Shown here one piece after another: positions 5,901 to 36,623 of a DNA stretch of 64,000 bases; the first letter of the stretch is position 1, and each line of letters starts with the position of its first letter. This stretch comes from Ricordea florida (taxonomy: Eukaryota; Cnidaria; Anthozoa; Corallimorpharia; Ricordeidae), in NCBI GenBank assembly GCA_949710005.1, contig OX453276.1, forward strand, positions 23,221,849 through 23,285,848, in the 5' to 3' direction. The notes under the pieces were generated by a model. It saw only the letters and a list, made by a program, of their open reading frames with translations, ran no database searches and was not told where the DNA came from. Made by a program: the position numbers and the translations under genes.

Positions 5901-7634
5901 AGTAATTCGCAATGGTATTGTATTTTGGCTGTCAAGATATTTGCTTAAGGCAGCTAATTCTATAGCATACTGCTCAGACAGTACTTAAGTTCATTAAATC
6001 AGTCCTCATTACAAAGATTAGTGATGCACATGCAATTTTCACCATCTTGTAGCAATTAAAATGTAATTTAAAATCCATTTTATGTGGTAATGATAGTCAT
6101 TTATAATACAAGATAGAATACTACGAGATTGTTGCAAGCAAGCTCAGCCTTACAGATTTTTGTCAAAACACCATATAAGAGATTGTATGGGCAGAAGGGC
6201 CGTTATCTAGGATCGTAGGTTATCGATTCATGTTGAATGTTCTATCTATATGAAATAGTAGGGTACAGACTCAGGTTTAGATAAGGAGTAGGATTTTAAT
6301 TGCAATGATTAGATTTCCATGCGATTTAAGGAAAGAACTTTTAGTTACTACGGATGCGCACTTCGACCAATTGCCTAAATCCTCTAAAATCAAAGTTATT
6401 CTATGATCCCTCGGCCTGCCGAATCTTTGCAATTCTGAAACTTTAAAGATTTGTAGTATTACGACAGGGCAATATCTACGTAAGAATTCAAATTTATAGT
6501 AGTTCGCAATCGTCTTGTATTTTGGCTAACAAGATATTTGCTTAAGGCAGCTAATTCTATAGCATACTGCTCAGACAGTACTTAAGTTCATCCAATCAGT
6601 CCTCATTACACAGATTAGTGATGCACATGCAATTTTCACCATCTTGTAGCAATTAAAATGTAATTTAAAATCCATTTTATGTCGTAATGATAGTCATTTA
6701 TAATACAAGATAGAATACCAAGAGATGGTTGCAAGGAAGTTTAGCCTTACAGATTTTTGTCAAAACACCATATAAGAGATTGTATGGGCAGAAAGGCCGT
6801 CATCTAGGATCGTAGGATATCGATTAATTTTGAATGTTCTATCTATATGTAATAGTAGGGTATAGACTCAGGTTAAGATAACAAGTACGATTTTAATTGC
6901 AATGGTTAGATTTCCATGCGATTTAAGGAAACAAGTTTTAGTTACTACGCTTTCGCACTTCGACCAATTGCCTAAATCCTTTAAAATGAAAGTTATTCTA
7001 TGATACCTCGGCCTGCCGAATCTTTGCAATTCTGAAACTTTGAAGATTTGTAGTATTACGACAGGGCAATATCTACGTAAGAAATCAAATTGATAGTATT
7101 TCGCAATCCTATTGTATTTTGGCTGTCAAGACATTTGCTTAAGGCAGCTAATTCTATAGCATACTGCTCAGACAGTACTTAAGTTTATCAAATCAGTCCT
7201 CATTACACAGATTAGAGATGCACATGCAATTTTCACCATCTTGTGGCAATTAAAATGTAATTTAAAATCTATTTTATGTCGTAATGATAGTCATTTATAA
7301 GAGAAGATAGAATACCACGAGATGGTTGCAAGGAAGCTCAGCCTTACATATTTTTGTCAAAACACCATATAAGAGATTGTATGGGCAGAAAGGCCATCAT
7401 CTAGGATCGTAGGTTATCGATTCATTTTGAATGTTCTATCTATATGTAATAGTAGGGTATAGACTCAGGTTTAGATAACGAGTACGATTTTAATTGCAAT
7501 AATTAGATTTCCATGCGATTTAAGGAAAGAACTTTTAGTTACTACGCATGCGCACTTTGACCAATTGCCGAAATCCTTTAAAATTATAGTTATTCTATAA
7601 TACCTCGGGCTGCCGAATCTTTGCAATTTTAAAA

Positions 7635-7878
7635 AGTAGTATATTTGGCGTCATTTCAATACCACTTGAGCTAGAAGCAATTTTTTTAGAAATGAAGCTT
7701 TTGTCTATATTTCCGATTTAAAGTATTGTTTTGTCTTGTTTTGACTTGTTTCCCACCTCCGAAGATTTTCGAAGATGACCCGAAGATGCACCGAAGATGA
7801 TCTGAAGATTTTTCGAGCGTTTTCCGAAAATTAATGAGCTATTTCAATTTAGACAAATATGCATACTATAAATCTTCG
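7635..7878 (+). repeat. Left terminal inverted repeat of the Polinton
   Basis: 244 bp matching the reverse complement of 22056-22299 with about nine substitutions and no gaps by eye (~96%). It contains five GAAGAT hexamers at 7761, 7771, 7782, 7793 and 7804, spaced 10-11 bp, that is, one helical turn. This phased cluster is the best candidate for a protein-binding or replication-initiation site. Confidence 0.96.
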
Positions 7879-7953
7879 TGAAAACGTTGGTGCAACGCGA
7901 ATCCTTGCGCGCCTACTGTTTCTTGTTGCTTTAAGTGAAAATTTGGTAAAACG

Positions 7954-8160
7954 ATGTCTTATGAGGATAATTGGGATGAGGTGGAGATAGAGGAGTTAGA
8001 AGATGTTATGGAGCAATTGGAGTTAGAGATGGAAGTTTTAGAACGTCAGATTGCTCGTTTACCTCCGTTAATTCAAGATCTTATCGAAGAGGAGGATTGC
8101 GCCCCCGTTCCTATTTGGGGTGGCTATATCGACCAACGGTTGATTTGTTCAAGTTCTTAG
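7954..8160 (+). CDS. Small acidic coiled-coil protein (unrecognised)
   Basis: 68 residues starting at ATG 7954, 75 bp inside the left TIR. The first half is very acidic and heptad-like (EVEIEELEDVMEQLELEMEV), predicted to form a coiled coil. The C-terminal part is short, with no motif I recognise. It is the first frame of the element and lies upstream of and parallel to the polymerase. I know no function for it. It could be an early regulatory or adaptor protein, or a chance frame. The strong composition bias and good start context argue mildly that it is real. Confidence 0.5.
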   Translation: MSYEDNWDEVEIEELEDVMEQLELEMEVLERQIARLPPLIQDLIEEEDCAPVPIWGGYIDQRLICSSS

Positions 8161-8184
8161 ACTTTAAGAGCGCATTTTTTGCGG

Positions 8185-8197
8185 TATATATATATAG
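8185..8197 (+). promoter_or_regulatory. TATA-like box upstream of polymerase gene
   Basis: TATATATATATAG, about 136 bp before the likely polymerase start at 8333. It is the only extended TA run between the small acidic frame and the polymerase. Confidence 0.45.
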
Positions 8198-8332
8198 AAC
8201 ACGTTGACAAAATTGGGAGCGTTTATTTTAGATGGTATGAAGGGGAAGGGTTAAACCGTAGTGGGAGTATAATAGACGCAACGCAAAAGTATTTCCATTT
8301 AGAAAATGGTGCATCAAAGGTATCTTCAAAAT

Positions 8333-11300
8333 ATGCCCACCGTCAAAGAGTTACGCTCTTTAGCAAGAAGTTATGGATTATCTGTAGGTTCTAAGATGCT
8401 AAAAGCTGACCTCCTACGAGCTATCGGGGAGGCTCGCGCTGCGGAGTGGAGGAAACGACTCCGGCGAGCGCTACAGACGGGGAGATACCCTGCTATTACC
8501 AGAGGGGATATAAAGAATCCTCATAAGAAGTGGCAGCGGGCTCGTGAACTCCGTCAACTTGCGAGAGAGGTTGACGCTGCGCTTCTCACGGAGGGTGTCC
8601 GAAAGAAAACTACTCCAACGATGAGGGCAGAAGTTCGTAGAAAAATTGAAAACCGTCGAGCCCCCTTAGAGCGATCTTTGGTTCGAGAAGGGGCGCGTAT
8701 ACTCGAAGAGTTGGATGGAGAGATAGAGGGAGAGGAAGCTGGTCGCCGCTTCTGGAAGTGGTCTTTCTTCCGAGGCGTGGACGGTCCTCTTGTGGATCGG
8801 ATTATGGATAAGCTCCACGAGAGGGTCACCACCAGCTGCTATCTCCGATATAGTTACACCTATCGACTAAGGAATATCGAAACGGGAAAAACTATGTTGT
8901 TTCACAAAATCGTAAAAGGTAGTCCTTGGATTCAGCGCCTAGAGCCGCAAGCTAGAGACTGGGTGCAGGCGGAAGACGAGAAGCGCTTGATTGGTGACCA
9001 AATTGAGCGACCTAACACCAAGTGGGTCTTCATCCGGTTTATCTCTGTGACAGTAAAAGCTGTAATAGATAGGTAGGTGCCTTTGTTGGGGACAGGACCA
9101 CTACCAGATTGGCTCCGAAGAAAGCGTGGGTTGAACTCCTTGGACACATATGGAGATAACCTCTGCCTCTTTCGGTGTATAGCGGTCCATCGTGGCGCGC
9201 GCGTGGATCGTTGTACCAGCCAAGCTCGAGTTCTTGCGAGAGAGATGTACCACTCGCACGAGGCTTGCCCAGGGGTTTCTCAGGACGAGCTGCGGAAAGT
9301 AGAGCAGCACTTTCGGCTAGGGATCCGGGTATACGAACCGACAGAGTCTGGAGATTGGCTGTATCGGAGGCAACCAGCACACTATGAAAAAGTAGGTACT
9401 CCACCGATGACGATCGGCGTCTACGAGAGGCACGCGTTTCTCATTCGCGACATACAGAAACTAGCGCATGTATACGTGTGTGGGGAGTGCAACGCGCGGT
9501 TTACAAAGATCAGCGATCTTTATCGCCACGCCGATCGTTGCACCCAAGGTGAGACAAAAGTTGTCTGCAAAAGAGAGAAAGTGGAAGCTCCGCTGTCTGC
9601 CTTTGAGAAGGCCTTCTACCCACAAAAACGGGATAGCGTCCAAGCCGTACAATGGCTCGAGTATGAAGCCCGCACCAGAGGGATTCATATCCATCACCAG
9701 CTATGTGGACATGGAGGCGAGCGAGTGATAGAAGGTTTCGCCGTAGACGGTTATGATCCCATTTCAAAGACCGTCTTCCAATTCAACGGGTGCCTATGGC
9801 ATGGGTGCAAACGCTGTTTCCCATCGCCGAAGCAACGCCAGGAGAAACTTCGGAATCTTTCCAAGAAAAATGGCAGCCCTGTTACACGCGAGATAGCATA
9901 CCAACAGACGCTCGAGCGAGAAGCCAAAATCCGAGCTGCTGGGTTTCGCCTTGTGGTTCGGTGGCAGCACGAGGAGCCTAAACCTTGGAGAAAAGATCGC
10001 ATCCTCGAACAAAAAACCGAGACCTACCCCCACGCGATCGTGTATGACTTCGAGAGTTACCTCGACAAGTCCAGTGCGAAAAAACCGACCGCCGATTTGA
10101 CTATAGAGGGAGCCCACGTTCCTATCTCCGTCTCCATATCAGACACCCTGGATCCGACTCCCGAACACCTATGCGTACGAGAGTCTAAGTTGTTGGTCGA
10201 AGAATTTGTTCGAGCGCTAGAACGACGGGCCGTTCGGATACGCGAACATGTTCGCGCGAGGTTCCTGCCCGACACCATCGAGCTCTTACCAAAAAAGTAT
10301 CGGGAAGCGATCGAAGATTGGTGCGACCAAGTCTCTGTGCTTGGATTCAATTCGGGGAAGTACGATTTGAATTTGATCCGGAACCACTTCGTCCCAGAAA
10401 TCTGCAAGACGACCGACCAGTCCATCAAAGTGGGGTGTAAGGAAAACCAGGTTATGTATATCACAACTCCGGGCTTCAAATTTCTGGACGTTTTGAACTA
10501 CATCGGTCCTGGAAAAACCTACGATGCTTGGGTCAAAGCCTACGGTTGCACTCTCACGAAGTCTTGGTTTCCGTACGAATGGTTCGACTCGCACGACAAG
10601 CTCGACTTCCCTGGCCTACCGGACTACCCACAGTGGTTTTCGAAACTGAAAGGCAAATATCTTCTTTCCCTTTCGGAATATCGAGACTGCAAGCGGGTAT
10701 TCCGGGAAAAGGGGATGCAGACCTTTGCGGACTGGCTCCGCTACTACAACAATCTCGACGTGGGCCCCTTCGTCGAAGCACTGGCCAAAATGCGCGACTT
10801 CTACATCGCGTATGGAATCGACATCTTCAAAGATGCGGTTAGTCTACCTGGAGTGTCGATGAGGTTCGTCTTGCGAGGCACACTTGGCAGCCCCAACCCG
10901 CCCGAGCTGTATGCCCCCAACAAAGAAGCGTACGACATGCTCAAAGCAGCGGTTGTCGGAGGGCCTTCGATTGTATTTACCCGCTACCACGAGGTGGGGG
11001 TCTCGCGGATCAGGTCGCACCAATACGACCAGACCCACCAATGTCAACGCATCCTCGGCTACGACGCGAACGCGCTCTACCTCTCTACCATGGCAGCCCC
11101 TATGCCCTGTGGGTAGGGAACGGTGATCCACTACCGTAGTCCGGACGAGCCAACCAGGGCTGTCGATGGGTTTGTGGAGGCTCTACGAGAAGGAAGGTGG
11201 TTCGGGTTCGCCGAGGTTGACATCGAGGTCCCCGAACACCTCTGGCCAAAGTTCGAAGAAATGCCCCCGCTCTTCTACAACAAGGAGATCCCCATCGAAG

Positions 11301-12340
11301 CGGTTCCCCAAGAGATGCTGGACTACCTCGAGCGAATGGGACGAACCCGATCAACAGATCCGAAGCTTGTAGGAGCGCTTTCCGCAAAGAAGATTCTGTT
11401 GTACGCCCCTCTGCTCCGCTGGTACCTCGCCCACGGTTTAGTTGTCACCGCGGTGTACCGGACGATCAACTACAAACCGCAAAAGATCTTCGGCTGGTTC
11501 GTCGACCAGGTTACAGAAGCTCGACGAGAAGGGGATACCAACAAGGACAAAGCACTGTTCGCTGACCTGTTTAAACTGCTGGGTAATAGTTGCTACGGCA
11601 AGTTTATCGAAGCGCTGGAGCGCCAGACATTGGTCTCCTACACAGCCGACGAAGCGGTGGTCGATCGTGCTCTCCGCTCTTCCTGGTTCGAGGACCTCGA
11701 CGAAATAGGTTCCGCCTACGAGATCCACAGGAGAAAGCAGAAGATCGAGATCACCCGCCCGTTCCAAATCGGAATCACAGTCTATCAGCTAGCCAAACTA
11801 CGGATGCTCGAATTCTACTACGACTTCCTAGACCATTTCGTAGACCGAAGATCCTTCGAGCTCCTACAGATGGATACCGACAGCCTGTACATGGGCATCG
11901 CCGGGAAAAACCTGGACGACGTTGTCCGCCCCGAGCTCCGCGAAGAGTTCGAGGGTTGCAAAAAGAAATGGCTAGCTTGGGACAAGTGAAGTGGCCGGAC
12001 TCCGGGCCTGTTCAAACTCGAGTTCGAGGGAACCCGGGCCATCGCTCTATGCAGCAAGGCGTACTACGTCGACAGCGAGCCAGCGGCGTCAGGGACAGAA
12101 AAAAGCAAAACCTCGGCGAAGGGGATGTCCAAGAAAGACAACGACTTGACCTGGAGGCGCTACAAAACAACCCTGGATGGAGCGCTCGACCGGGCAGAAA
12201 ACCGGGGATTCCGAATGGACCACGGAAAGATGACAACGTACCACCAGGATAAACTCGGGCTTTTCGCCTACTACGACAAGAGACGAGTTCTACCCGACGG
12301 GATTCACACCGAACCCCTTGAGTACACTTTCAGGGGGTAA
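8333..12340 (+). pseudogene. Protein-primed family B DNA polymerase with three in-frame stops
   Basis: Replicative polymerase of the element. One frame runs about 1335 codons from ATG 8333 (an in-frame ATG at 8306 is an alternative). Order: N-terminal SAP-like helix pair (VKELRSLARSYGL), DNLCLFRCIAVHRG segment near 9155-9196, C2H2-type finger (C..C and H...C, ~9480-9541), restriction-endonuclease-like motif with QFNGCLWHGC (~9780), ExoI YDFESY (~10045), ExoII GFNSGKYDLNLIR (~10343), ExoIII YYNNLDV (~10742), palm motif A YDANALY (~11060), motif B KLLGNSCYGK (~11572) and motif C QMDTDSLYMG (~11869). The frame is cut by TAG 9074-9076, TAG 11114-11116 and TGA 11987-11989. Sequence on both sides of each stop stays in the same frame and remains polymerase-like, and no indel is seen. 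Convergent overlap of 51 bp with integrase. As read, the product is inactive unless the stops are bypassed. Confidence 0.93.
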
Positions 12341-13306
12341 TTCGGTATTCCAAGGTACTACCTGCAGCTCCTCGCGGATGAAGCCTCGTTTTGGCCCGTC
12401 TCTGAGAAAGTAGACCACAGGTTCGCCTGGTCGAATCTCCGCACGCGCCTGTTCGTACACCTCGAGGCCCGTTGATCGTCTTCGCCCACCCTCCTGCTCA
12501 CCAGGCTGGTATAAATACCGTAAGTCGGCGTCAGACGAAAGTCTCTCCTCCTCCAAACCAACCGCTCTCCCCGGTAAAACAGAGGAGGACCTGCTTTGCG
12601 CCACCGATTTGGCTTCGATGGCATCCTGCGGCTTTTTTCCGATCAACCGCGTCGGTTCGTTGTTCAAAGCCGCGACAACAGCAGGCAGCCGAGCCACCCA
12701 TTCAACCGATCTTTCTCCTTCGGGAAGAAGCATCTCCTGGGCGTACTGGTAACCGAACAACCGCTCGGCTAGAGTCCTGTTGAACCTCTCAACGATCGCT
12801 TGGTCTCGGTGGATGTCCACTCGGCCACGCCGAACTTCGGTATTGTGGCGAGCTAGTAGCGGTAAGACAGCACCCATGAACTCTTTTCCTGGATCGACTT
12901 GGAGTAGCTTGGGCCAGGTCAAAGGACTTCGCTTGTAGATGCGCTCCAACGCTCCCGCGACTTCTCTCGCTTCCTTTGAAGCCAACGGCTCAGCCTCTTT
13001 GTAGCGCGAGGCAACATCGACCACAGTGAGCGCATATTTGTAAAGCTTCCGCCCACGTCCCGGACGGTCATGAGGTAGAAATAGAAGATCGGCCTGATGA
13101 ACCTCGTTTGGTGTTGAGACATTGAACCTTGGCCTCGGTATGCGTTGTGGAGGCAGCAGGTAGATCTGCCACATTGCCTGTTTTTCTAGCCACGCCAGGA
13201 CGGCATCTTCAGAGACGCCAGCCGCGTCCGCCAACTTCTTCGAGGCAGCGAACCCCTTCCAATAACCCTGAAGGCTGTAGTAGATATCGGACAGCTTCTT
13301 TTCCAT
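12290..13306 (-). CDS. Retroviral-type (rve) integrase of Polinton
   Basis: 338 residues from ATG 13306; the longer open frame begins without an ATG. It inserts the element's DNA into the host genome. The DDE catalytic core is visible: D in HQADLLFLP, D in QVDPGKEFMGAV and E in the QAIVERFNRTLAERLF helix. An N-terminal helical region precedes the core. The C-terminal part contains GEPVVYFLRDGPKRGFIREELQVVP-type strands, like the SH3/chromodomain-like tail of these integrases. CTATAG lies just before the start. The frame is intact, and its 3' end overlaps the polymerase gene tail by 51 bp. Family assignment is firm. Confidence 0.93.
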   Translation of the reverse strand: MEKKLSDIYYSLQGYWKGFAASKKLADAAGVSEDAVLAWLEKQAMWQIYLLPPQRIPRPRFNVSTPNEVHQADLLFLPHDRPGRGRKLYKYALTVVDVASRYKEAEPLASKEAREVAGALERIYKRSPLTWPKLLQVDPGKEFMGAVLPLLARHNTEVRRGRVDIHRDQAIVERFNRTLAERLFGYQYAQEMLLPEGERSVEWVARLPAVVAALNNEPTRLIGKKPQDAIEAKSVAQSRSSSVLPGRAVGLEEERLSSDADLRYLYQPGEQEGGRRRSTGLEVYEQARAEIRPGEPVVYFLRDGPKRGFIREELQVVPWNTELPPESVLKGFGVNPVG

Positions 13307-13344
13307 TGGTCTATAGTTCCATTGCGAAAAAAAGCTATTGTGTC

Positions 13345-13776
13345 TCACAACAATCGGCTAGCAGCATACCCAATGGCGAGCATCCCACCCCCTACATAGG
13401 CCAATTCACCTGTTCGTTGGGAACTCGAAGGACGGTAATAATCGCTCCATTGCGGGGCGTCGTGGTCATCAACCGCTGTGGGACGAGGATGGGTTTTAGC
13501 GTACAAGTCGAGAGCGCGGTTAGTTGCAGCTGTGTCTTGGTCAGCGCGATTTCGCAGTCGCTCCTGCTCTGCTTCCCAATCAGCCAGATTCTCGCGGCGT
13601 TTCTGAAAGACAGCCCAGTCAGCCTGGAACTTTTCCAAAGCTTTGTCGTGACGCTTACGCTCAGCCGCCATTGCATCGGGAACTTTCCCAGAAATCGCCC
13701 GTGCGAGATACGACCCACCTACGAAGGCCGTAGCGTTCAAGATAGCCCCACCAAGCATCAACGCTATGGTTGCCAT
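13345..13776 (-). CDS. Conserved-looking Polinton membrane/coiled-coil protein, unknown
   Basis: 143 residues. Hydrophobic N-terminus (MATIALMLGGAILNATAFVG) and C-terminus (GGGMLAIGYAASRLL) flank a charged helical middle rich in R, E and K (about residues 35-85) likely to form a coiled coil. A protein with both ends membrane-inserting or tail-embedded is one possibility. Start ATG 13776 lies 2 bp after the stop of the upstream 71-residue gene, so the two are probably co-transcribed. It is separated from integrase by 38 bp. No enzymatic motif. I do not know its function; a virion-membrane or assembly role is inference from position among morphogenesis genes. Confidence 0.65.
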   Translation of the reverse strand: MATIALMLGGAILNATAFVGGSYLARAISGKVPDAMAAERKRHDKALEKFQADWAVFQKRRENLADWEAEQERLRNRADQDTAATNRALDLYAKTHPRPTAVDDHDAPQWSDYYRPSSSQRTGELAYVGGGMLAIGYAASRLL

Positions 13777-13778
13777 CT

Positions 13779-13994
13779 CTACTCAGTTGGGATTATCTTC
13801 TTATCGACTAAGTATTGCCTAGCTGCGACGGCTCCAGAGAGAACTGCAACCCACTTCGCGTAGTTTTCAATCGACGAGGAAGGGTCCGAGATCATAGGCG
13901 TTTTGAGAACCTTTTTCCCCAACCAACCGATACCAGCAGCAATGCCTGTCAGAGTTGCCGCTTCGACAACAGTGTTTACGACTTTGTTGTTCAT
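13779..13994 (-). CDS. Small two-helix membrane protein, unknown
   Basis: 71 residues from ATG 13994; an upstream non-ATG extension contains a TATAG-like motif and is unlikely to be coding. Two hydrophobic stretches: ATLTGIAAGIGWLG near the N-terminus and WVAVLSGAVAA near the C-terminus, joined by a polar linker, consistent with a small hairpin membrane protein. TTGTATTGTATAG precedes the start. It ends 2 bp before the next gene downstream. Not recognised by family. Confidence 0.6.
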   Translation of the reverse strand: MNNKVVNTVVEAATLTGIAAGIGWLGKKVLKTPMISDPSSSIENYAKWVAVLSGAVAARQYLVDKKIIPTE

Positions 13995-14016
13995 CGAGAC
14001 TATACAATACAAAAAT

Positions 14017-14412
14017 CTATTCCATAATTTCGCGAGGCCGCGCAGGCTCGGGTGGCGGGTGAGTAAGCTTTGGCTGCTGCTGCGGTTCCATAATTTCGCT
14101 AGGCCGCGCAGACTCGGGTGGCGGGTGAGTAAGCTTTGGCTGCTGCTGCGGTTGCTTGAGATGCGCTAGATATAGACTATACAGACTGGCGAAGAGGCTC
14201 CCTGCGGCAATCAGGAGCCCCCAATTCCAGCTTGTCGTAGCTCGGTGTGGTTCGTCGTCGTGGCTCTCGCGAGACCGCTCTCGAGCCAGAGCTTGTCGAC
14301 CTTTTTTGTTCCTAGCCGCGAGGGCTCGGCCAGCCGCGACCTTCTTAGGATCCTTTTGCTTATTCGGAGCTACGGGAGCGGCCGGCGCTGTAATACGATC
14401 TTCTTCTTCCAT
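14017..14412 (-). CDS. Basic single-span membrane protein with duplicated Pro/Gln tail
   Basis: 131 residues from ATG 14412; a GTG just upstream is not needed. N-terminus acidic, then a strongly basic segment KDPKKVAAGRALAARNKKGR, then one transmembrane helix NWGLLIAAGSLFASLYSLYLA, then a proline/glutamine-rich tail made of two copies of a 22-residue unit (QQQPKLTHPPPE core). The basic block may bind nucleic acid. The topology suggests a small membrane-anchored or virion protein. A TATAGTATAC-like motif lies about 20 bp before the start. Function unknown; the KDPKKVAAGR-plus-TM layout looks like a recurring Polinton type, but I cannot verify that here. Confidence 0.65.
   Translation of the reverse strand: MEEEDRITAPAAPVAPNKQKDPKKVAAGRALAARNKKGRQALARERSRESHDDEPHRATTSWNWGLLIAAGSLFASLYSLYLAHLKQPQQQPKLTHPPPESARPSEIMEPQQQPKLTHPPPEPARPREIME
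14020..14151. repeat. 66 bp tandem duplication inside the membrane-protein gene
   Basis: Two copies (14020-14085 and 14086-14151) beginning ttccataatttcg and differing at a few bases. Because 66 is a multiple of 3 the frame is kept and the protein gains 22 residues at its C-terminus. Confidence 0.95.
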
Positions 14413-14474
14413 CACTTTCAGACAGGGCTCGTATACTATACAAACACCAAAAAAAAAAAATTGCGAGCGGGACC

Positions 14475-14984: not shown

Positions 14985-14986
14985 GA

Positions 14987-15634
14987 CTATATATCTGCCG
15001 AAACAATTTTGCTGGGAGCTGGGATTTCCAACACGATATCGAATGGATGGCGGAGACGGAAGCAAAGTCTGGCGTACGGATGCTCCTTGAGCGCGGATAG
15101 CATTTGGTGCCGCTCCTCCTTCGAGTGTCCCACCCCGTAGTTCTCCCAAAGCGTTTTCCCGTCGAGCTCGCTCGGGCTGTAAAACGTCAACGTCGCTGCC
15201 ACATTCTCCCGGAACGCTTTTGCCACGCTCGTGTATTGTTGGATCAAAAGCCATACTGAAAAATTCTTGTGCCTGCCGGAGAAAGCCAGCTCGATCAAAG
15301 CGCTGCGATGTCTTCTTACGTCCTTACTGGCGGCGCAGTCGTCCAGAATAAGCAACACCTGGCCACGTCCTTCGAAGACCGCGACCGCCAACCGGAGGCA
15401 CTTCTCAATTTCACCACCCGAGTTCGATGGCGCCAGGGCGACGAAGCCGGGGTCCTTCAGGGCAAATCCCCAATATGTTTTGTTGTGGACGTACGTCAGG
15501 CAAATCAAACACGCGACGTGGAACTTCCCACGAAAAGGACCGCGGAGAGCTTCGACGACCAGTCTCGACTTCCCCGACGCCGTTGGGCCAACGATAAGAA
15601 GGTGGCCGGGTATCAAGTCGGTGAGAAAATCCAT
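14987..15634 (-). CDS. FtsK/HerA-type genome-packaging ATPase
   Basis: 215 residues. Walker A GPTASGKS (about residues 16-23), a strand before Walker B with VLLILDDCAAS (about 93-103), and a later polar motif LLIQQYT consistent with sensor/arginine regions of the A32/FtsK-HerA family. In related elements this ATPase pumps linear DNA into the capsid. Start ATG 15634 is preceded 2 bp upstream by the palindrome CCTATATAGG. Intact. Its stop codon overlaps the promoter-like motif of the following gene. It lies next to MCP, as expected for a morphogenesis module. Confidence 0.92.
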   Translation of the reverse strand: MDFLTDLIPGHLLIVGPTASGKSRLVVEALRGPFRGKFHVACLICLTYVHNKTYWGFALKDPGFVALAPSNSGGEIEKCLRLAVAVFEGRGQVLLILDDCAASKDVRRHRSALIELAFSGRHKNFSVWLLIQQYTSVAKAFRENVAATLTFYSPSELDGKTLWENYGVGHSKEERHQMLSALKEHPYARLCFRLRHPFDIVLEIPAPSKIVSADI

Positions 15635-15636
15635 GG

Positions 15637-15646
15637 CCTATATAGG
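15637..15646. promoter_or_regulatory. Palindromic CCTATATAGG motif before ATPase start
   Basis: A perfect 10 bp palindrome 2 bp upstream of ATG 15634 (minus). It is the clearest copy of the TATATAGG-type motif found before several genes of the element. It lies in the 20 bp between the MCP stop and the ATPase start. Confidence 0.6.
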
Positions 15647-15654
15647 GGCGGTGA

Positions 15655-16884: not shown

Positions 16885-16916
16885 AATTTTCTTGTATATA
16901 TAGGCAGAAACAAAAC
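16885..16916. promoter_or_regulatory. 32 bp bidirectional promoter between MCP and the coiled-coil gene
   Basis: The whole gap between two divergent ATGs (16884 minus, 16917 plus). It contains TGTATATATAGG at 16893-16904. Both transcripts must start inside or next to this motif, so leaders are very short. Confidence 0.6.
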
Positions 16917-17915
16917 ATGGATATCAACCCTGATGAAATGACCCCTTTGATGACCCCCGACGATCCCGAGCCCGCCGGCGCTGAAGGTGGGAGGGTTAAC
17001 CCCAGCTTCGACCCCGCCGATCTGCCGGAGGGTGGAGAACAATTCGGGATGTATGACTTAAGACCGCGAGGTCGTCCCCGTGAGCCTGCCACAGCAGAAA
17101 CGTCGTTTTCGACCGACCCTGTTGATACAATGTTGTTTCAGGGGGCACGACCAAAAACGAAGATGGTGACCAACCCTTTTGACGGGAGGCCAATAAGCGA
17201 AAAATTGCTGAAAGATGCGAAGTTGGAATTGGAGAACGAATATCCCCAAGCTAACGGTTACGAAATAGGTATTGTCGGTGGTCGTATTATGATTCGTGTG
17301 TGGGAGGGGGAAAATAAGACGTGGCGACCGCTGCGCAACTTGCATGGTGGTTTTACGCAGAACTTCTCTAAAGAATTGAAAGAAGTTCTAGGACCCTCCG
17401 TGGGTGAGATAATCGAAGAACATAACAACACAATAGAAAACCTCGAGCAGCAAAATCGACAGGACGAGGAGATAAGATTCGCCCCCGATATTTCACCCGA
17501 AGATAGGCGTGCCGCGGAGGCGCGGATTGCGGCGCGCGAGGAAAAGATTCAAGAACTCGAGCGGCAAAGCGAAGCCCTTGAGGAGAGAATGTCTCTGCGC
17601 AAACGCGTAAAAGCCATTTTCAAGAAGTACGGAGTAGGGGTCCTGGGGGTTCTCGTAGCGGCTGGAACGGTCATTGGGGTTATCTTGGGGGCTTTACAGC
17701 GGGGGCTCGCCGGCGTAGCGCAAGGGGTAGGGCGGGGACTGAAGGCCATCGGAAAAAAGATCGGGGAGCTACTACCTGGGGCCATAGGCGCCATTGTCTC
17801 GTTTCTCTTCCGCACGGCTGGAGAAGCTGTTGGTTTCTTAGCGAAAAACGCCTGGCTCTTGATCGTAGCCGTGGTCGTGTTTCTCATCGAGCGCTACAAG
17901 AAGAAGTCTACCTAA
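16917..17915 (+). CDS. Coiled-coil plus multi-pass hydrophobic virion-type protein, unknown
   Basis: 332 residues. N-terminal ~60 residues are acidic/proline-rich and probably disordered. A middle region (~75-145) looks folded. Residues ~160-220 are a long charged coiled coil (EEKIQELERQSEALEERMSLRKR). The last ~105 residues are glycine-rich and hydrophobic with at least three membrane or amphipathic segments: GVLGVLVAAGTVIGVILGAL, then GAIGAIVSFLF, then NAWLLIVAVVVFLIE, ending KKKST. Divergent from MCP across a 32 bp promoter, so probably expressed with it. The tail overlaps the convergent neighbour by 8 bp. Function unknown; a membrane-active minor capsid protein is possible but unproven. 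Confidence 0.75.
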   Translation: MDINPDEMTPLMTPDDPEPAGAEGGRVNPSFDPADLPEGGEQFGMYDLRPRGRPREPATAETSFSTDPVDTMLFQGARPKTKMVTNPFDGRPISEKLLKDAKLELENEYPQANGYEIGIVGGRIMIRVWEGENKTWRPLRNLHGGFTQNFSKELKEVLGPSVGEIIEEHNNTIENLEQQNRQDEEIRFAPDISPEDRRAAEARIAAREEKIQELERQSEALEERMSLRKRVKAIFKKYGVGVLGVLVAAGTVIGVILGALQRGLAGVAQGVGRGLKAIGKKIGELLPGAIGAIVSFLFRTAGEAVGFLAKNAWLLIVAVVVFLIERYKKKST

Positions 17916-19137
17916 ACAACCACCAAGTCGCACCTGCGGCCACAACAGTGACTGCAGCTAGATTTCGCTCGTGCGCCGTTGGGGCCGGTTCTTTTCTTTT
18001 TGGTGTTATTTTCGGTACAAGGGGGTCTGGGGCTTTTGTTTTCGGTGTTGTTTTCGACCGCAGGGGGAGTGTGGCTTTTATTTTCGGCGTGAGCTTATGT
18101 GTCCTCTCGTTTACGTTAGGATTGACCCCGAAGGTCATATCACTGGTCGCTTTCTGGAGCTCGTTGTTGTACCCGAGAACGCTGTTTGAATTAATAACAA
18201 GACGGCTGGGGAGCAACCAGAGCCCTGGGGCGACAGCCCGATTCAGCTGCGCTCGAGCGTCTGACAAAGCCCTTTGATAGTTCTGGATGCCGGTGGAGAT
18301 ATCGTTTACTACGATTGTCTCCTCTAGAAGTTGTCTAAACATTTGGCGGGTCTCAACAGCACTGCCGCTCGCCCCCACGATAGTAGATCGGGTTTTGACT
18401 TGCGAGCCATGAACACAATAAACTAAAGCCTCGATACTACGATTTAGACGCCCCATGCCAGCCTCCGTCAGACCTTCACCCTTTTTCGGTGAAAACCAGC
18501 TGTATTGCGCTCCGCCGTGTGCATCGTTTCGGATAAAGGCCAACAGATTACCTTGATTCTTTTTCCCACCCTCATCTGAGAAGAGATTCAGGCTATCAGG
18601 GCATGTGTTTGCTTCGGTGTCATAGCCACGGATGACGTGCAAGTTCTTTGGACCCTCGCTTGGGTACGTTATAAACACGTCTCCAAGAACGTGGTTTCGT
18701 CCGCCCTTCCAACGAAAGTCGGGGGCTCTAGGTAGTCCGAATTCGATGCAGAGGCTTTCAAAGGCGGACTTGCGAAGTGGGATGTTTGTTTTTTGGAACG
18801 CCTTGTCTCCGGGGAGGGGACAGCCGAGCTCGAATAGGATACGGCGGATGGTGAAGTATACGTGGAAGCTAAGCAGCCCCTGAACTATGGGCGGGAAGGT
18901 TTTATTGGTCGGGTCGGTAATCGACACCCCACACCCTGCAGTTGCGCACCATGTGGCGAAGTTCAGCTGCTGAGGCCAATATTCGTACGTGGGAGAAGAA
19001 AGCCAACGATGAGCCTCCTTTGCCGAGCAATGTGTGATAGTAGTTTCCTTCCAGAAGTCTCGGACTCCTGCTTTGAACGAGATTTTAGGGTCAACAAAGA
19101 TCTCTAGCTCTCGAAGCAGCGGTGTGATTTCAGACAT
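17908..19137 (-). CDS. Large conserved-type Polinton protein with C-terminal anchor, unknown
   Basis: 409 residues from ATG 19137; an upstream in-frame GTG extension is unlikely. N-terminal ~300 residues look globular with several cysteines and aromatic motifs, notably SPTYEYWPQQLNFATWCATA near residues 48-67. This is followed by a lysine/proline/threonine-rich low-complexity linker (KITPKRKEPAPT and similar repeats of 'KxTPK') and a short hydrophobic C-terminus AAVTVVAAGATWWLFR that could anchor it in a membrane. The globular-linker-anchor layout suggests a surface or internal virion protein. No catalytic triad of a cysteine protease is evident. Function not recognised. Converges on the 332-residue gene with 8 bp overlap. 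Confidence 0.75.
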   Translation of the reverse strand: MSEITPLLRELEIFVDPKISFKAGVRDFWKETTITHCSAKEAHRWLSSPTYEYWPQQLNFATWCATAGCGVSITDPTNKTFPPIVQGLLSFHVYFTIRRILFELGCPLPGDKAFQKTNIPLRKSAFESLCIEFGLPRAPDFRWKGGRNHVLGDVFITYPSEGPKNLHVIRGYDTEANTCPDSLNLFSDEGGKKNQGNLLAFIRNDAHGGAQYSWFSPKKGEGLTEAGMGRLNRSIEALVYCVHGSQVKTRSTIVGASGSAVETRQMFRQLLEETIVVNDISTGIQNYQRALSDARAQLNRAVAPGLWLLPSRLVINSNSVLGYNNELQKATSDMTFGVNPNVNERTHKLTPKIKATLPLRSKTTPKTKAPDPLVPKITPKRKEPAPTAHERNLAAVTVVAAGATWWLFR

Positions 19138-19176
19138 CGTTTCAGCGAACGAAACGGCTGGCACGGGGTATTTGTC

Positions 19177-19320
19177 CTAGCTGCGGAGAAGGAGAGCTTG
19201 CGGAAAATTGCTCTGTTTAGGAAATTTAATTTTTTCCAAGGTTTTACCGAACTCTACGGCCTTTTTTGGAAACGCTGTTTTTAGAACAGACCAAAGATCT
19301 ATTTCGTGGGATTGATCCAT
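19177..19320 (-). CDS. Possible 47-residue small protein
   Basis: ATG 19320 to TAG 19177. Basic and lysine-rich (KKAVEFGKTLEKIKFPKQ in the middle). Its start lies directly at the TGTATATATG motif shared with the divergent plus-strand gene, and it sits between two minus/plus virion-type genes with no overlap to the left neighbour. Too short to judge by family. It is kept because the promoter placement repeats the MCP arrangement. Confidence 0.4.
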   Translation of the reverse strand: MDQSHEIDLWSVLKTAFPKKAVEFGKTLEKIKFPKQSNFPQALLLRS

Positions 19321-19333
19321 GGTGTATATATGT

Positions 19334-20014
19334 ATGTCCCTCAGCATAGCGGCAAGCGAGGGTGTAAACGAACTTTACCCTCCGGTCGTTGGTGAGCTCT
19401 CGAGTGTCGCAGCTCGAACCGTGAAGATCCCTGAAATAACGCTCACAGTACTTAAAACGATGGATATATATTTCTTCGCTCTCAACTCATGGGACAAATT
19501 GAACCTCATTCGCGAAGGAAAAGCCGATTTTGCCACGATCAGGAAAGCGAAAGGGAACATTCTGGTCTCAATTCCGAAGGGGGAGTACAACCTCCACTGT
19601 CTACAACAGGCAATTGTCTATGGGCATGGAAAGGATGTCGCCGCGGGCACTTGTGAACTTCGGATAACCGCTACTGGAGTGTATTTCTTCTCGAAAGTAC
19701 AGGTGATCCTAGACATCAAGCTAGCCGACTTGTTGGGGATATCCGAAGTCCCGCGCGTTCTGATTCACGTTCCTGTACAATGGGGACCGCCCTCTGTTTC
19801 AATCTACTTCGATTTGGTGACCCCCAACAATTCGTATGAGGATGGCAAGCCCTCCTATCTCCTGGCAAAGGTCGAACCGCTGAAGCTTCAAGGTCCTTCG
19901 GTGTGGCATTTGCGACCGTTTTATCTCCCCGTCGACCCCACAAAAAGAAATCTCTTTCGAGTTTGGACGGTACCGACGACCAAGGTTGAAGTTTTGTTAG
20001 AACTCTGTATATAG
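19334..20014 (+). CDS. Putative penton/minor capsid-like protein
   Basis: 226 residues from ATG 19334; an earlier in-frame ATG at 19319 would place the TATATA motif inside the gene, so I prefer 19334. The sequence is beta-rich with alternating hydrophobic strands, no membrane helix and few charged clusters. Features: KGEYNLHCLQQAI, then LDIKLADLLGI, then VSIYFDLVTPN followed by KPSYLLAKV, and a final strand region ending in TTKVEVLLELC. This order of motifs resembles the penton-type proteins of Polintons and adintoviruses, but I rate it as inference. Located in the capsid gene block and followed at 4 bp by the next gene. Confidence 0.5.
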   Translation: MSLSIAASEGVNELYPPVVGELSSVAARTVKIPEITLTVLKTMDIYFFALNSWDKLNLIREGKADFATIRKAKGNILVSIPKGEYNLHCLQQAIVYGHGKDVAAGTCELRITATGVYFFSKVQVILDIKLADLLGISEVPRVLIHVPVQWGPPSVSIYFDLVTPNNSYEDGKPSYLLAKVEPLKLQGPSVWHLRPFYLPVDPTKRNLFRVWTVPTTKVEVLLELCI

Positions 20015-20017
20015 GGG
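20006..20017 (+). promoter_or_regulatory. TGTATATAGGGG motif at gene junction
   Basis: It overlaps the stop of the penton-like gene (ending 20014) and ends 1 bp before ATG 20019, so the promoter-like motif of one gene is built into the last codons of the one before, as at 14986-14994. Confidence 0.55.
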
Positions 20018-20018
20018 T

Positions 20019-20615
20019 ATGGAATCTGATTGTTTGTACCCAAAGGTTCCCACCGCCCCCAACGATGAGGGGCATTCATTTCGGCTTCAAAAGATTTGTG
20101 ACATTCAGACCACCCTAAAAAACAGTATCGCCCATTACGAGGGGGTTCGGAAAAAATATACCCGCTCTCGGACAATTCTAAACGGGGTAGCTTTAACCGC
20201 TGGAAGTCTGAGCGTTATACTTTCGGCTTCGGGCCTAGCCGCCTCTTTGACCGGCCTTGGGATTGTCGTTGGGGTTCCACTGGGTGCTATTGGTGGCATC
20301 TTCGGAATCGTGTCAGCATCGATGGTCCGGGTCAGTAAACGGATCGCCGTAAAGATCTCCAAGCATGAGCGAACCGTCACGATTGGTGAGACGAAGTTGA
20401 GTACCATCAACGACCTGGTCTCGAAAGCCTTACAGGATAACCAAATCAGCGCTACTGAATTTCAACTTATTCTGTCTGAGGTTGAAAAATATAAAACTCT
20501 CAAGCGCGAGATTAAACAAAAAGCTTTGACAAAAAACGAGGACCTCGATCTGACAAAGCTGCGGACCGAGATTCGCAGCGAACTGGTCGCAGAAATGCGC
20601 GAAAAACTCGCTTAA
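20019..20615 (+). CDS. Membrane-hairpin protein with charged helices, unknown
   Basis: 198 residues. N-terminal helical region (~20-48) with basic residues. Then about 55 residues of hydrophobic, glycine/alanine-rich sequence (VALTAGSLSVILSASGLAAS, then GLGIVVGVPLGAIGGIFGIV) likely forming a membrane hairpin. Then a basic helix (VRVSKRIAVKISKHERTV) and a long charged C-terminal helical part rich in K, E and L that may form a coiled coil (SEVEKYKTLKREIKQKAL). Lies 4 bp after the penton-like gene, probably the same transcription unit, and ends in a 3 bp overlap with the convergent neighbour. I do not recognise a named family. A membrane-penetration or virion-membrane role is only a guess from structure. 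Confidence 0.65.
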   Translation: MESDCLYPKVPTAPNDEGHSFRLQKICDIQTTLKNSIAHYEGVRKKYTRSRTILNGVALTAGSLSVILSASGLAASLTGLGIVVGVPLGAIGGIFGIVSASMVRVSKRIAVKISKHERTVTIGETKLSTINDLVSKALQDNQISATEFQLILSEVEKYKTLKREIKQKALTKNEDLDLTKLRTEIRSELVAEMREKLA

Positions 20616-21169
20616 GTGGAGGTTGTTATTTCCACGTTGAACGATGACTTCAGCTTGGACCATAGATCCTCGTATTTTCGAAGCGTCGTCGGTCGAATGT
20701 TTGAGATGTCGCACAGGGCTGCTCTTTCAGGGTCCTTTCGGAGTTCGAAGATTACTTTCAACAGCCATATCAGCTTTGGACACCGGCGGTAGCCTGAGAC
20801 AAAACTCAAGTTGTCCTCAATATGATTCACAAGGTTTACTATCGATTCTCTTTCGAAGAAATCAAGCTCGAACTCTTTCATCAACAATTTTTGCAACGCG
20901 GACCTTCTAGTTTTTGATCTTGGTCTAGGTATATACCACTCGTTTCGCCGGTCGGTTGGAAAGTTCCATGTAAGATGATCAAACTCACCAGAAACCACAC
21001 GCTGACAAAGTCGAGGGCTGGCTGAAAGATACCCCTCGATGCTTTCTGGGTTGGGATGGGGAGAAATTGGAGGGTCTTCTAAGAAAGAGGTTGCTAAGAG
21101 TTTTAACTGCGAGAGGTAAGTAGAGGAATAATTTTCTTTTTTCAAGCTGTCAGCGACCATTACATCCAT
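20612..21169 (-). CDS. Unrecognised 185-residue protein
   Basis: From ATG 21169 (another ATG three codons in). Mixed alpha-type sequence with basic patches, including WYIPRPRSKTRRSALQKLLM near the middle and TTLRKYEDLWSKLKSS near the C-terminus. No signal peptide, membrane segment or catalytic motif. It does not show the His/Cys arrangement expected of an adenovirus-type protease. It is transcribed from the right side of the element like the next gene, so it may belong with early or non-structural genes. Function unknown. Confidence 0.6.
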   Translation of the reverse strand: MDVMVADSLKKENYSSTYLSQLKLLATSFLEDPPISPHPNPESIEGYLSASPRLCQRVVSGEFDHLTWNFPTDRRNEWYIPRPRSKTRRSALQKLLMKEFELDFFERESIVNLVNHIEDNLSFVSGYRRCPKLIWLLKVIFELRKDPERAALCDISNIRPTTLRKYEDLWSKLKSSFNVEITTST

Positions 21170-21231
21170 TTTTGGGGTCTATTGATTGCTAATCTTTAAT
21201 TGCCTGCCCAAAAAAAGTGAGGCTGGTCGGG

Positions 21232-21837
21232 TTAGCCGAGCCACAACGAGCTCAGCCAATTCATGGTTGCTCCGAATTCAGGCGCGCCAAACTCTTCGAC
21301 ATCTTCCACCTGCCGCTCGAACATGGCGAGGGCATCGCTCACAAATTCAAAGAAATACTGTCTTGTTTCATCACGAGGGAGAAATTTGCCGCCCCTATTT
21401 TCCAACCAGCGATTGTGGGCGAGCTGGCACTCGCGGTAAATCAGTCGGACCTCTGCGACCCGTACCTCTGTATAATAAAAGTACTTTGTACGCGAGATGA
21501 CGGAAGTGAAATACCCGCTTCGGCCAACATTTTCAAGAAGTGCCGCTAATTTTCTTGGCACCCCACGGGTCTGAAACTCCCTCCGGAGTTGATCATCGAC
21601 GGCATAGAAGGTGCCGTCACAAAGCTGTTCTCGCAACCGCGAATCTCCACTCAACCACACGAGGGCGACATCGCGGGACGATAGATTGAAATTCGCCCGC
21701 CTATCTGCACGTTCTATCACCACGCGCGCTCGAGGGTGCGCCAATAAAGCGCGACGCAGTTGAGCTTTGACCATCTTAGACCGGCCAGGGATCTGGTATC
21801 TTGTTGCCAAAGCGCGTAACTCTTTGACTGAAAGCAT
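21232..21837 (-). CDS. SAP-like-domain protein near right TIR
   Basis: 201 residues from ATG 21837, the outermost gene on the right, pointing inward. The N-terminus MLSVKELRALATRYQIPGRS continues into KMVKAQLRRALL, a helix-turn-helix of SAP type (DNA/chromatin-binding). It is very similar to the first ~30 residues of the polymerase frame at the other end (VKELRSLARSYGL, then SKMLKADLLRAI). The rest is alpha-rich with basic and aromatic residues and no known enzyme motif. A role in recognising element or host DNA is inference. The mirrored placement of two SAP-like proteins at the element's ends is notable. Confidence 0.65.
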   Translation of the reverse strand: MLSVKELRALATRYQIPGRSKMVKAQLRRALLAHPRARVVIERADRRANFNLSSRDVALVWLSGDSRLREQLCDGTFYAVDDQLRREFQTRGVPRKLAALLENVGRSGYFTSVISRTKYFYYTEVRVAEVRLIYRECQLAHNRWLENRGGKFLPRDETRQYFFEFVSDALAMFERQVEDVEEFGAPEFGATMNWLSSLWLG

Positions 21838-22055
21838 GTTTATGGAAATACCTTTTATGAACCACTCTCTAAATGGAAATAATTTTTGTGTCGCCTATTA
21901 TTAATTAATCAAACATGGATTTCTCACAGACTTGAAACGTTTTTTTTTTTTCCCCCACCGAAGAGCAAGGGATCAACAAAATTCGCTCAGAGGCCACCGG
22001 AGCCCCAGACGATAGGGGGGCGGAGGACGTGCGCGCTGCCCTGTGGCTTCCCCCC

Positions 22056-22299
22056 CGAAGATTTATAGTATGCATATTTGTCTAAATTGAAATAGCTCAT
22101 TAATGTTCGGAAAATGCTCGGAAAATCTTCGGATCATCTTCGGTGCATCTTCGGGTCATCTTCGAAAATCTTCGGAAGTGGGAAACAAGTCAAAACAAGA
22201 CAAAACAATACTTTAAATCGGAAATATAGACAAAAACTTCATTTTTAAAAAAATAGCTTCTAGCTCAAGTGGTATTGAAATGACGCCAACTATACTACT
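22056..22299 (-). repeat. Right terminal inverted repeat of the Polinton
   Basis: Reverse complement of 7635-7878. The phased hexamers appear as ATCTTC at 22125, 22136, 22147, 22158 and 22168. Between the last gene (ending 21837) and this TIR there is a 218 bp gap holding a T/C homopolymer run and no convincing gene. Confidence 0.96.
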
Positions 22300-25200
22300 T
22301 AAAACTTTGAAGATTTGTAGTATTACGAAAAGGCAATATCTACGTAAGAAATCAAATTGATAGTAATTCGCAATCGTATTGTATTTTGGCTGTCAAGATA
22401 TTTGCTTAAGGCAGCTAATTCTATAGCATTCTGCCCAGAATGTGCCCAAGTTCATCAAATCAGTCCTCATTACACAGATTAGTGATGCAAATGCAATTTT
22501 AACCATCTTGTAGCAATTAAAATGTAATTTAAAATCCATTTTATGTGGTAATGATAATCATTTATAATAGAAGATAGAATACCACGAGATGGTTGCAAGA
22601 AAGCTCAGCCTTACAGATTTTTGTCAAAACACCATATAAGAGATTGTATGGGCAGAAGGGCCATCATCTAGGATCGTAGGTTATCGATTCATTTTGAATG
22701 TTCTATCCATAAGCTATAGTAGGGTATAGGCTCAGGTTTAGATAACGAGTACGATTTTAATTGCAATGATTAGATTTCCATGCGATTTAAGGAAACAACT
22801 TTCAGTTACTACGCATGCGCTCTTCGACCAATTGCCTAAGTTCTTTAAAATGAAAGTCATTCTATGATACCTCGGCCTGCCGAATTTTTGCAATTCTGAA
22901 ACTTTGAAGATTTGTAATATTACGACAAGGCAATATCTACGTAAGAAATAAAATTGATAGTAATTCGCAATCGTACTGTATTTTGGCTGTCAAGATATTT
23001 GCTTATGGCAGCTAATTCTATAGCATACTGCTCAGACAGTACTCAAGTTCATCAAATAAGTTCTCATTACACAGATTAGAGATGCACATGCAATTTTCCC
23101 CATCTTGTAGCAATTAAAATGTAATTTAAAATCCATTTTATGTGGTAATGATAGTCATTTATAATACAAGATAGAATACCAAGAGATGGTTGCAAGGAAG
23201 CTCAGCCTTACAGATTTTTGTCAAAACACCATATAAGAGATTGTATGGGCAGAAGGGCCATCATCTAGGATCGTAGGTTATCGATTCATTTTGAATGTTC
23301 TATCTATATGTTATAGTAGGGTATAGGCTCAGGTCTAGATAACGAGTACGATTTTAATTGCAATGATTACATTTCCACGCGATTTAAGGAAAGAACTTTT
23401 AGTTACTACGCATGCGCACTTCGACCAATTGCCTAAGTCGTTCAAAATGAAAGTTATTCTATGATACCTCGGCCTGCCGAATCTTTGCAATTCTGAAACT
23501 TTGAAGATTTGTAATATTACGACAGGGCAATATCTACGTAAGAAATCAAATTGATAGTAATTTGCAATCGTATTGTATTTTGGCTGTCAAGATATTTGCT
23601 TAAGACAGCTAATTCTATAGCATACTGCTCAGACAGTACTCAAGTTCATCAAATCAGTCCTCATTACACAGATTAGTAATGCACAAGCAATTTTCACCAT
23701 GTTGTAGCAATTAAAATGTAATTTAAAATCTATTTTATGTCGTAATGATAATCATTTATAATAGAAGATAGAATACCAAGAGATGGTTGCAAGGAAGCTC
23801 AGCCTTACAGATTTTTGTCAAAACACCATATAAGAGATTGTATAGGCAGAAGGGCCATCATCTAGGATCGTAGGTTATCGATTCATTTTGAATGTTCTAT
23901 CTATAAGCTATAGTAGGGTATAGGCTCAGGTTTAGATAACGAGTACGATTTTAATTGCAATGATTAGATTTCCATGCGATTTAAGGAAACAACTTTCAGT
24001 TACTACGCATGCGCACTTCGACCAATTGCCTAAGTTCTTAAAAATGAAAGTTATTCTATGATACCTCGGCCTGCCGAATTTTTGCAATTCTGAAACTTTG
24101 AAGATTTGTAATATTACGACAAGGCAATATCTACGTAAGAAATCAAATTGATAGTAATTTGCAAACGTACTGTATTTTGGCTGTCAAGATATTTGCTTAT
24201 GGCAGCTAATTCTATAGCATACTGCTCAGACAGTACTCAAGTTCATCAAATCAGTCCTCATTACACAGATTAGAGATGCACATGCAATTTTCACCATCTT
24301 GTAGCAATTAAAATGTAATTTAAAATCCATTTTATGTCGTAACGATAGTCATTTATAATACAAGATAGAATACCAAGAGATGGTTGCAAGGAAGCTCAGC
24401 CTTACAGATTTTTCTCAAAACACCATATAAGAGATTGTATGGGCAGAAGGGCCATCATCTAGGATCGTAGGTTATCGATTCATTTTGAATGTTCTATCTA
24501 TATGTTATAGTAGGGTATAGGCTCAGGTTTAGATAACGAGTACGATTTTAATTGCAATGGTTAGATTTCGATGCGATTTAAGGAAAGAACTTTTAGTTAC
24601 TACGCATGCGCACTTCGACCAATTGCCTAAGTCCTTCAAAATGAAAGTTATTCTATGATACCTCGGCCTGCCGAATCTTTGCAATTCTAAAATTTTGAAG
24701 ATTTGTAATATTACGACAGGGCAATATCTACGTAAGAAATCAAATTGATAGTAATTCGCAATCGTATTGTATTTTGGCTGTTAAGATATTTGCTTAAGAC
24801 AGCTAATTCTATAGCATGCTGCTCAGACAGTACTCAAGTTCATCAAATCAGTCCTCATTACACAGATTAGTAATGCACATGCAATTTTCACCATCTTGTA
24901 GCAATTGAAATGTAATTTAAAGTCTATTTTATGTCGTAATGATAATCATTTATAATAGAAGATAGAATACCAAGAGATGGTTGCGAGGAAGCTCAGCCTT
25001 ACAGATTTTTGTCAAAACACCATATAAGAGATTGTATGGGCAGAAGGGTCATCATCTAGGATCGTAGGTTATTGATTCATTTTGAATGTTCTATCTATAT
25101 GTAATAGTAGGGTATAGACTCAGGTTTAGAAAACGAGTATGATTTTAATTGCAATGATTAGATTTCCATGCGATTTAAGAAAACAACAATTAGTTCCTAC

Positions 25201-36337: not shown

Positions 36338-36623
36338 AGGCCTTGTTAACATCATTATCAGAAATATTAGACCATTCAATTTCTTGCAACTCCGAGAGAA
36401 ACACGTTAGCATTGAAATTGGAATAATCACGTAATTTTTTCCTTTGGTTTGAATGGTTAATTGAGTCAGGTCTGTATTGTGGCAACACAGCCTTACTCAA
36501 TTAACCATTCAAACCAAAGGAAAAAATTACGTGATTATTCCAATTTCAATGCTAACGTGTTTCTCTCGGAGTTGCAAGAAATTGAATGGTCTAATATTTC
36601 TGATAATGATGTTAACAAGGCCT
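36338..36623. repeat. 129 bp inverted duplication at the LINE 5' end
   Basis: 36338-36466 is the reverse complement of 36495-36623, essentially perfect by eye, with a 28 bp spacer. The same protein fragment (SINHSNQRKKLRDYSNF) is therefore encoded on both strands. Ordinary twin-priming inverts a 5' segment but does not duplicate it. Confidence 0.93.

What the first reader, a model, noticed from the sequence alone, without database searches (positions are those of the whole stretch)
7629..22304. Complete virus-like Polinton inserted in one monomer of a satellite array, with a readable empty site
TTAAAA flanks both ends, and joining the flanks gives a satellite context found uninterrupted in neighbouring monomers. 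The insertion is therefore defined to the base, and sister monomers act as built-in empty-site controls. A 14.7 kb gene-rich element in a satellite that could spread by unequal exchange raises the question whether the array amplifies or silences it.
Basis: seen in the sequence. Interest (0 to 1): 0.75.

Follow-up and report, generated by a model that had tools for sequence, protein, structure and literature searches.

The report
Broken Polinton inside a satellite array
A 14.7-kb virus-like mobile element inserted once, cleanly, into one unit of a repetitive DNA array in an animal genome, perhaps a sea anemone's; it seems to have decayed there without being copied by the array, while many relatives elsewhere in the genome look fresher.

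Summary
A 14,665-bp Polinton/Maverick element (7635-22299) interrupts one 597-bp satellite monomer in phase; joining the flanks restores a full-length monomer whose junction occurs uninterrupted for 45 bp at 30631. The literal TTAAAA repeat is better read as a 5-bp duplication, TAAAA, plus the element's own terminal T: 19 of 29 copies examined show 5 bp, 2 show 6 bp, 8 are unresolved. Each junction occurs once in the 538-Mb assembly, allowing 3 mismatches, so no amplification by the array is visible. It is one of about 80 located family copies and the only one with satellite at a sampled flank, which is near chance if the satellite is roughly 0.8% of the genome. It is not coding-complete: the polymerase frame has two in-frame stops, the capsid gene one. 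Its terminal repeats differ at 9/240, against a pooled 25/4843 for 21 other copies: probably an older insertion, though the element is a mosaic. CpG comparison with one close copy shows no methylation-type decay. An ordinary integration in an unusually readable setting.

The parts
7630..7634 (.). left target-site duplication, TAAAA (5 bp)
22300..22304 (.). right target-site duplication, TAAAA (5 bp)
7635..7878 (+). left terminal inverted repeat, begins AGTAGTATA
22056..22299 (-). right terminal inverted repeat
8303..11989 (+). one frame with a weak (below cut-off) SAP/Rho_N-like start followed by family B DNA polymerase; two in-frame stops (9074-9076, 11114-11116) split it into three ORFs. That the first stop is a break and not a gene boundary is inferred from the longer open frames of other copies
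12290..13306 (-). retroviral-type (rve) integrase, 338 aa, open
13345..13776 (-). 143-aa ORF, no family
14017..14412 (-). 131-aa ORF, no family
14987..15634 (-). A32-type genome-packaging ATPase, 215 aa
15658..16884 (-). major capsid protein; an in-frame stop at 15925-15927 ends it at 319 aa, the six closest relatives have 396-415 aa
16917..17915 (+). 332-aa ORF, no family
17908..19137 (-). 409-aa conserved protein, 1780 relatives (most of the 120 listed are about 500-550 aa); one in-frame stop upstream of its start in the alignment to relatives, whether a break is uncertain; function unknown
19319..20014 (+). 231-aa ORF, candidate minor capsid (penton) by position and size only
   Evidence: no Pfam match
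20019..20615 (+). 198-aa ORF, no family
20612..21169 (-). 185-aa ORF, no family
21232..21837 (-). 201-aa ORF with a weak (below cut-off) Rho_N-like N-terminus
1..7629 (+). satellite array, 597-bp monomers, left of the insertion (itself interrupted at 2348-2926)
22305..35384 (+). satellite array, 597-bp monomers, right of the insertion

Best explanation
A member of a large Polinton (Maverick) family, probably recently active, was integrated once into one monomer of a 597-bp satellite by its own rve integrase, with a 5-bp staggered cut duplicating TAAAA. Shown: the ends, the duplication, the empty site, the unique junctions, a family of insertions with matching ends at unrelated sites, and the broken genes. 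Inferred: the integrase did it; the insertion is older than most sampled copies and lost function in place; the array went on duplicating monomers locally without copying the element. The site looks like chance rather than targeting.
For: Joined flanks restore a 597-bp monomer and match a sister junction over 45 bp. The same terminus and 5-bp duplications appear at unrelated sites, with no target consensus or palindrome (47 of 190 complementary pairs; shuffled mean 49.7). Junctions are unique. Genes: polymerase, integrase and ATPase by Pfam above cut-off; capsid fold. Family: 65 scored polymerase copies, window included, out of 5197 first-look candidates; 51 of 65 stop-free in the 679-codon piece, 25 of 65 stop-free with an open frame of at least 1320 aa. 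Window terminal repeats differ at 9/240 versus pooled 25/4843 in 21 other pairs, Fisher p = 2e-5. The three closest satellite pairs differ by 1.2-1.8%, less than 3.75%.
Against: The window and the C3 copy (nearest by terminal repeat and polymerase piece) differ by 0.9% in a 2-kb polymerase piece but by 6.4% and 4.7% in two other pieces, so the element is a mosaic and terminal-repeat divergence may not be a clean clock. Five of the nine differing sites carry window alleles also seen, rarely, in other copies. C3 itself, the nearest copy, has a 6-bp duplication. Gene conversion can make satellite pairs look young. No reads were available to check the assembly.
Confidence: 0.88

Rival explanations
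1. The junctions are a misassembly joining satellite to an unrelated Polinton contig.
For: Satellite arrays are prone to assembly error; no reads could be inspected.
Against: Both ends stop at the family's terminus with a 5-bp duplication, and the flanks rejoin in phase to a full monomer. A chimera would not be expected to do this at both ends.
Confidence: 0.03
2. The array amplifies the element by unequal exchange, giving several copies in the satellite.
For: The array does duplicate units locally (pairs 3574-3575 bp apart, six monomers, 1.35-3.2% divergent).
Against: Each junction is found once genome-wide with up to 3 mismatches, and no element piece or terminal repeat was found in 25 kb of fetched neighbouring sequence.
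Confidence: 0.04
3. The 9/240 terminal-repeat divergence does not mean old age: the element inserted with unlike ends after recombination between lineages, or mutates or converts faster in the satellite.
For: Internal pieces show a mosaic against the C3 copy (99.1%, 93.6%, 95.3%), and some window alleles are shared with other copies.
Against: At four of nine sites the window allele occurs in none of the other terminal repeats readable there, and at the other five it is rare (1-3 of 45-60). The element also carries at least three in-frame stops. The rate private to the window against C3 in the repeats (8/480, read from the alignment) is not significantly above the polymerase difference (18/2001, p = 0.14).
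Confidence: 0.3
4. Polintons of this family target the satellite or AT-rich TTAAAA sites.
For: This insertion is in AT-rich satellite at TTAAAA; the central base of the 5-bp duplication is A or T in 17 of 19 sites.
Against: None of the other roughly 79 located copies has satellite at the sampled flank; the outer end is uncertain where no terminal repeat was recognised (16 of 60 loci) or only its inner part matched.
Confidence: 0.03

Closest known systems
Polinton/Maverick elements (Polintoviricetes)
   Same: rve integrase, family B polymerase, A32-type ATPase, major capsid protein, terminal inverted repeats, and an AGTAGT start that fits the (AGT)2//(ACT)2 end type reported for vertebrate Mavericks (PMC8097293, passages)
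   Different: Mostly 5-bp rather than 6-bp duplications, within the 5-6 bp range stated for Maverick/Polinton elements (PMC8547959, passages); no cysteine protease recognised; this copy is broken
Polintons of Nematostella vectensis (P-3_NV, named in PMC4028283, passages)
   Same: A Polinton with a capsid gene in a sea anemone; the only named capsid relatives here are two from the sea anemone Actinostola, 56% and 52%
   Different: Not compared directly; no P-3_NV sequence was at hand
Adintoviruses
   Same: Integrase plus family B polymerase plus capsid layout in animals (recalled; only the search listing was seen)
   Different: Membership not tested; no phylogeny was made

Membership tests
Polinton/Maverick | family B DNA polymerase of the protein-primed type | tested here: met
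   PF03175 above cut-off in two ORFs of one frame, E 2e-7 and 1.5e-6; frame broken by stops. Protein priming itself was not tested
Polinton/Maverick | retroviral-type integrase | tested here: met
   PF00665 just above cut-off, 32.9 against 32.6 bits; at least 3499 relatives among 7996 scored candidates, PF00665 in the 120 listed
Polinton/Maverick | A32/FtsK-type packaging ATPase | tested here: met
   PF04665 above cut-off
Polinton/Maverick | double jelly-roll major capsid protein | tested here: met
   All 50 PDB matches listed are capsid or scaffold chains of an iridovirus, PBCV-1, Melbournevirus, vaccinia or orf virus, best E 4e-7; but model pLDDT is 62 and TM-scores are low (0.29-0.39 by query). 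PF16903 in 1 of 12 members, not in the window's own protein; PDB sequence profile search found no capsid of this kind at E below 0.2
Polinton/Maverick | minor capsid (penton) protein | tested here: inconclusive
   231-aa ORF in a plausible place, no Pfam match at E up to 1
Polinton/Maverick | Ulp1-family cysteine protease (listed for Polintons in PMC11071308, passages) | tested here: inconclusive
   No such family in the ORFs scanned; not every short ORF was scanned, and the copy is decayed
Polinton/Maverick | terminal inverted repeats of a hundred bases or more | tested here: met
   235 of 244 identical inside the element
Polinton/Maverick | 5-6 bp target-site duplication | tested here: met
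   5 bp here; 19 of 29 copies 5 bp, 2 of 29 6 bp, 8 of 29 unresolved. A strict 6-bp rule would not be met by this copy
satellite DNA | long head-to-tail array of one unit at several sites | tested here: met
   597-bp unit; 5090 exact 24-mer matches genome-wide, the first 100 listed on C1 and C4, further blocks on C5
Adintovirus | clustering with adintovirus polymerase/capsid | not tested
   no tree made

The most novel reading that the evidence does not exclude
The satellite acts as a refuge: Polinton copies landing in it are tolerated and persist to decay, while copies elsewhere are young because they turn over. The array keeps exchanging units locally but does not pass a 14.7-kb insert through exchange. 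One host genome with dozens of open copies and an internally dated satellite copy would let this be measured. So far it rests on one satellite copy.
Probability: 0.2. Interest if true: 0.5.

Novelty: new member of a known kind. Interest (0 to 1): 0.35.

Why it matters
Many transposon insertions lack a trustworthy empty site; here sister monomers in the same array supply one, and the same genome holds a large family of similar elements, many with open polymerase genes. That allows integration precision, duplication length and fate by context to be measured in one animal. The single satellite copy by itself is an ordinary event.

Tried and rejected
A viral-contig scan for the 409-aa protein found no relative. 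PDB sequence searches with the capsid profile and with the integrase gave nothing useful. A fold search with the 409-aa model gave no match at E below 1 (model pLDDT 57.6). A target motif was tested and rejected. The reading of a 6-bp duplication was dropped. The idea that 5-bp duplications are new was dropped, which states 5-6 bp for this class. Literature searches for a Polinton in a satellite (listings only) showed no title on that subject; no stronger claim is made. The host could not be named: the sea anemone reading rests on two Actinostola capsid relatives (56% and 52%), while named integrase relatives include molluscs at 70%, so it is weak.

Unresolved or dropped rows: 8 of 29 copies gave no clear duplication (one pair off by a base, one with different ends, two with a wrong or missing partner end, four with no partner found). 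Two of the 19 five-bp cases need a three-base slip in the AGTAGT start. In 16 of 60 loci no terminal repeat was recognised, and in many of the other 44 only its inner part matched. The terminal-repeat divergence comparison used 22 pairs; the C14 pair was not added. The copy clusters use typed, partly rounded positions.
Full report
What is there. The window lies on contig C5 (23,221,849-23,285,848) of a 538-Mb, 48-contig assembly. Up to 7634 and from 22307 to 35384 it is a head-to-tail array of 597-bp monomers on the + strand, with one further insertion at 2348-2926. Between the two parts lies a 14,665-bp element, 7635-22299, with 51.6% G+C against 34.1% in the array. Its ends are inverted repeats identical at 235 of 244 bases.

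Ends and empty site. In most other copies looked at the terminus is AGTAGTATA, which places the window's duplication at 5 bp, TAAAA, with the next base belonging to the element. Across 29 copies examined, 17 show an exact 5-bp duplication directly and 2 more after allowing a three-base slip in the AGTAGT start; 2 show 6 bp, one of them the nearest copy, and 8 are unresolved. Joining the window's flanks restores a monomer of exactly 597 bp in phase, and the joined junction matches an uninterrupted junction at 30631-30675 over 45 bp. The insertion is therefore base-precise and a misassembly is unlikely.

What the element encodes. On the + strand one frame from 8303 to 11989 carries a weak SAP/Rho_N-like start and a family B polymerase, broken by two in-frame stops; many other copies have a single frame of about 1330-1345 aa. 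On the - strand are an rve integrase, an A32-type ATPase and a major capsid gene. The capsid model resembles capsid or scaffold proteins of iridovirus, PBCV-1 and vaccinia, though its confidence is modest; one in-frame stop ends the gene at 319 aa where the six closest relatives have 396-415. A 409-aa protein has 1780 relatives but no recognised fold, with an in-frame stop upstream of its start in the alignment to relatives. No cysteine protease was recognised in the ORFs scanned. This is a Polinton in anatomy, and this copy is defective.

The family. A 679-codon polymerase piece finds 65 scored copies (of 5197 first-look candidates) at 91-100% amino-acid identity, the window's own included; 51 of 65 have no stop in the piece and 25 of 65 have a stop-free frame of at least 1320 aa. 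The counts are lower bounds. Together with copies found by their terminal repeats this makes about 80 clusters. Against the copy on C3, nearest by terminal repeat and polymerase piece, the window element is 99.1% identical over 2 kb of polymerase but 93.6% and 95.3% in two other pieces, so lineages have probably recombined.

Why this site. The satellite is abundant: 5090 exact matches to one conserved 24-mer, or very roughly 0.8% of the assembly if two thirds of monomers keep that word as in the window. With about 80 copies, 0.67 would be expected in satellite by chance; one is seen. Apart from the window's own loci, no fetched flank matched the satellite, with the caveat that in 16 of 60 loci no terminal repeat was recognised and in many others only its inner part. 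Targeting is not supported.

Amplify or silence. Each junction occurs once genome-wide even with 3 mismatches, and no piece of the element was found in 25 kb of fetched neighbouring sequence or elsewhere in the window. The array has meanwhile duplicated monomers locally, the three closest pairs differing by 1.2-1.8%. For silencing there is only indirect evidence: the element's CpG content is not depleted (1.10 observed/expected), and CpG losses between the window and C3 are even, 13 against 13 over three pieces.

Age. The window's two terminal repeats differ at 9 of 240 sites, the most of 22 pairs compared; the other 21 pairs pool to 25 of 4843. At four of the nine sites the window allele occurs in none of the other terminal repeats readable there; at the rest it is rare. 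Together with the stops this suggests an older insertion that decayed in place. Because the element is a mosaic, the repeats could also have differed at insertion, so the age reading is inference.

Known or new. Polintons in sea anemones are in print (P-3_NV of Nematostella, PMC4028283, passages), and 5-6 bp duplications are stated for this class (PMC8547959, passages), although vertebrate Mavericks are described with 6 bp (PMC8097293, passages). The host identity is a weak inference from two capsid relatives in Actinostola; named integrase relatives include molluscs. The finding is a new member of a known kind in an unusually readable setting.

Noticed in passing
window 2348-2926: A second insertion in the same array, 579 bp, with a hairpin-like end and about 13 bp of monomer duplicated on either side.
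   Followed up: partly
window 8269-8407 and 21763-21901: An internal inverted repeat, 75% identical over 140 columns, linking the start of the polymerase frame to the SAP-like gene at the right end; looks like an old duplication inside the element.
   Followed up: no
G000, e.g. C3:29802627-29817294: The genome holds a large Polinton family, many copies with open polymerase frames and nearly identical terminal repeats.
   Followed up: partly
window vs C3 copy (L123-L125): Identity varies between pieces (99.1%, 93.6%, 95.3%), suggesting recombination between lineages.
   Followed up: partly
G000:C4 about 16.3-16.6 Mb and 17.85-17.94 Mb: Further large clusters of the same satellite, on opposite strands in the two stretches (the listing stops at 17.94 Mb); possibly pericentromeric, not tested.
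   Followed up: no
window 36461-38746: 761-aa ORF with a reverse transcriptase domain next to the array.
   Followed up: no
window 46495-47139: ORF with RING and TRAF-type zinc fingers, best PDB match TRAF6.
   Followed up: no
window 61649-62434: 60-bp tandem repeat, 13 copies.
   Followed up: no
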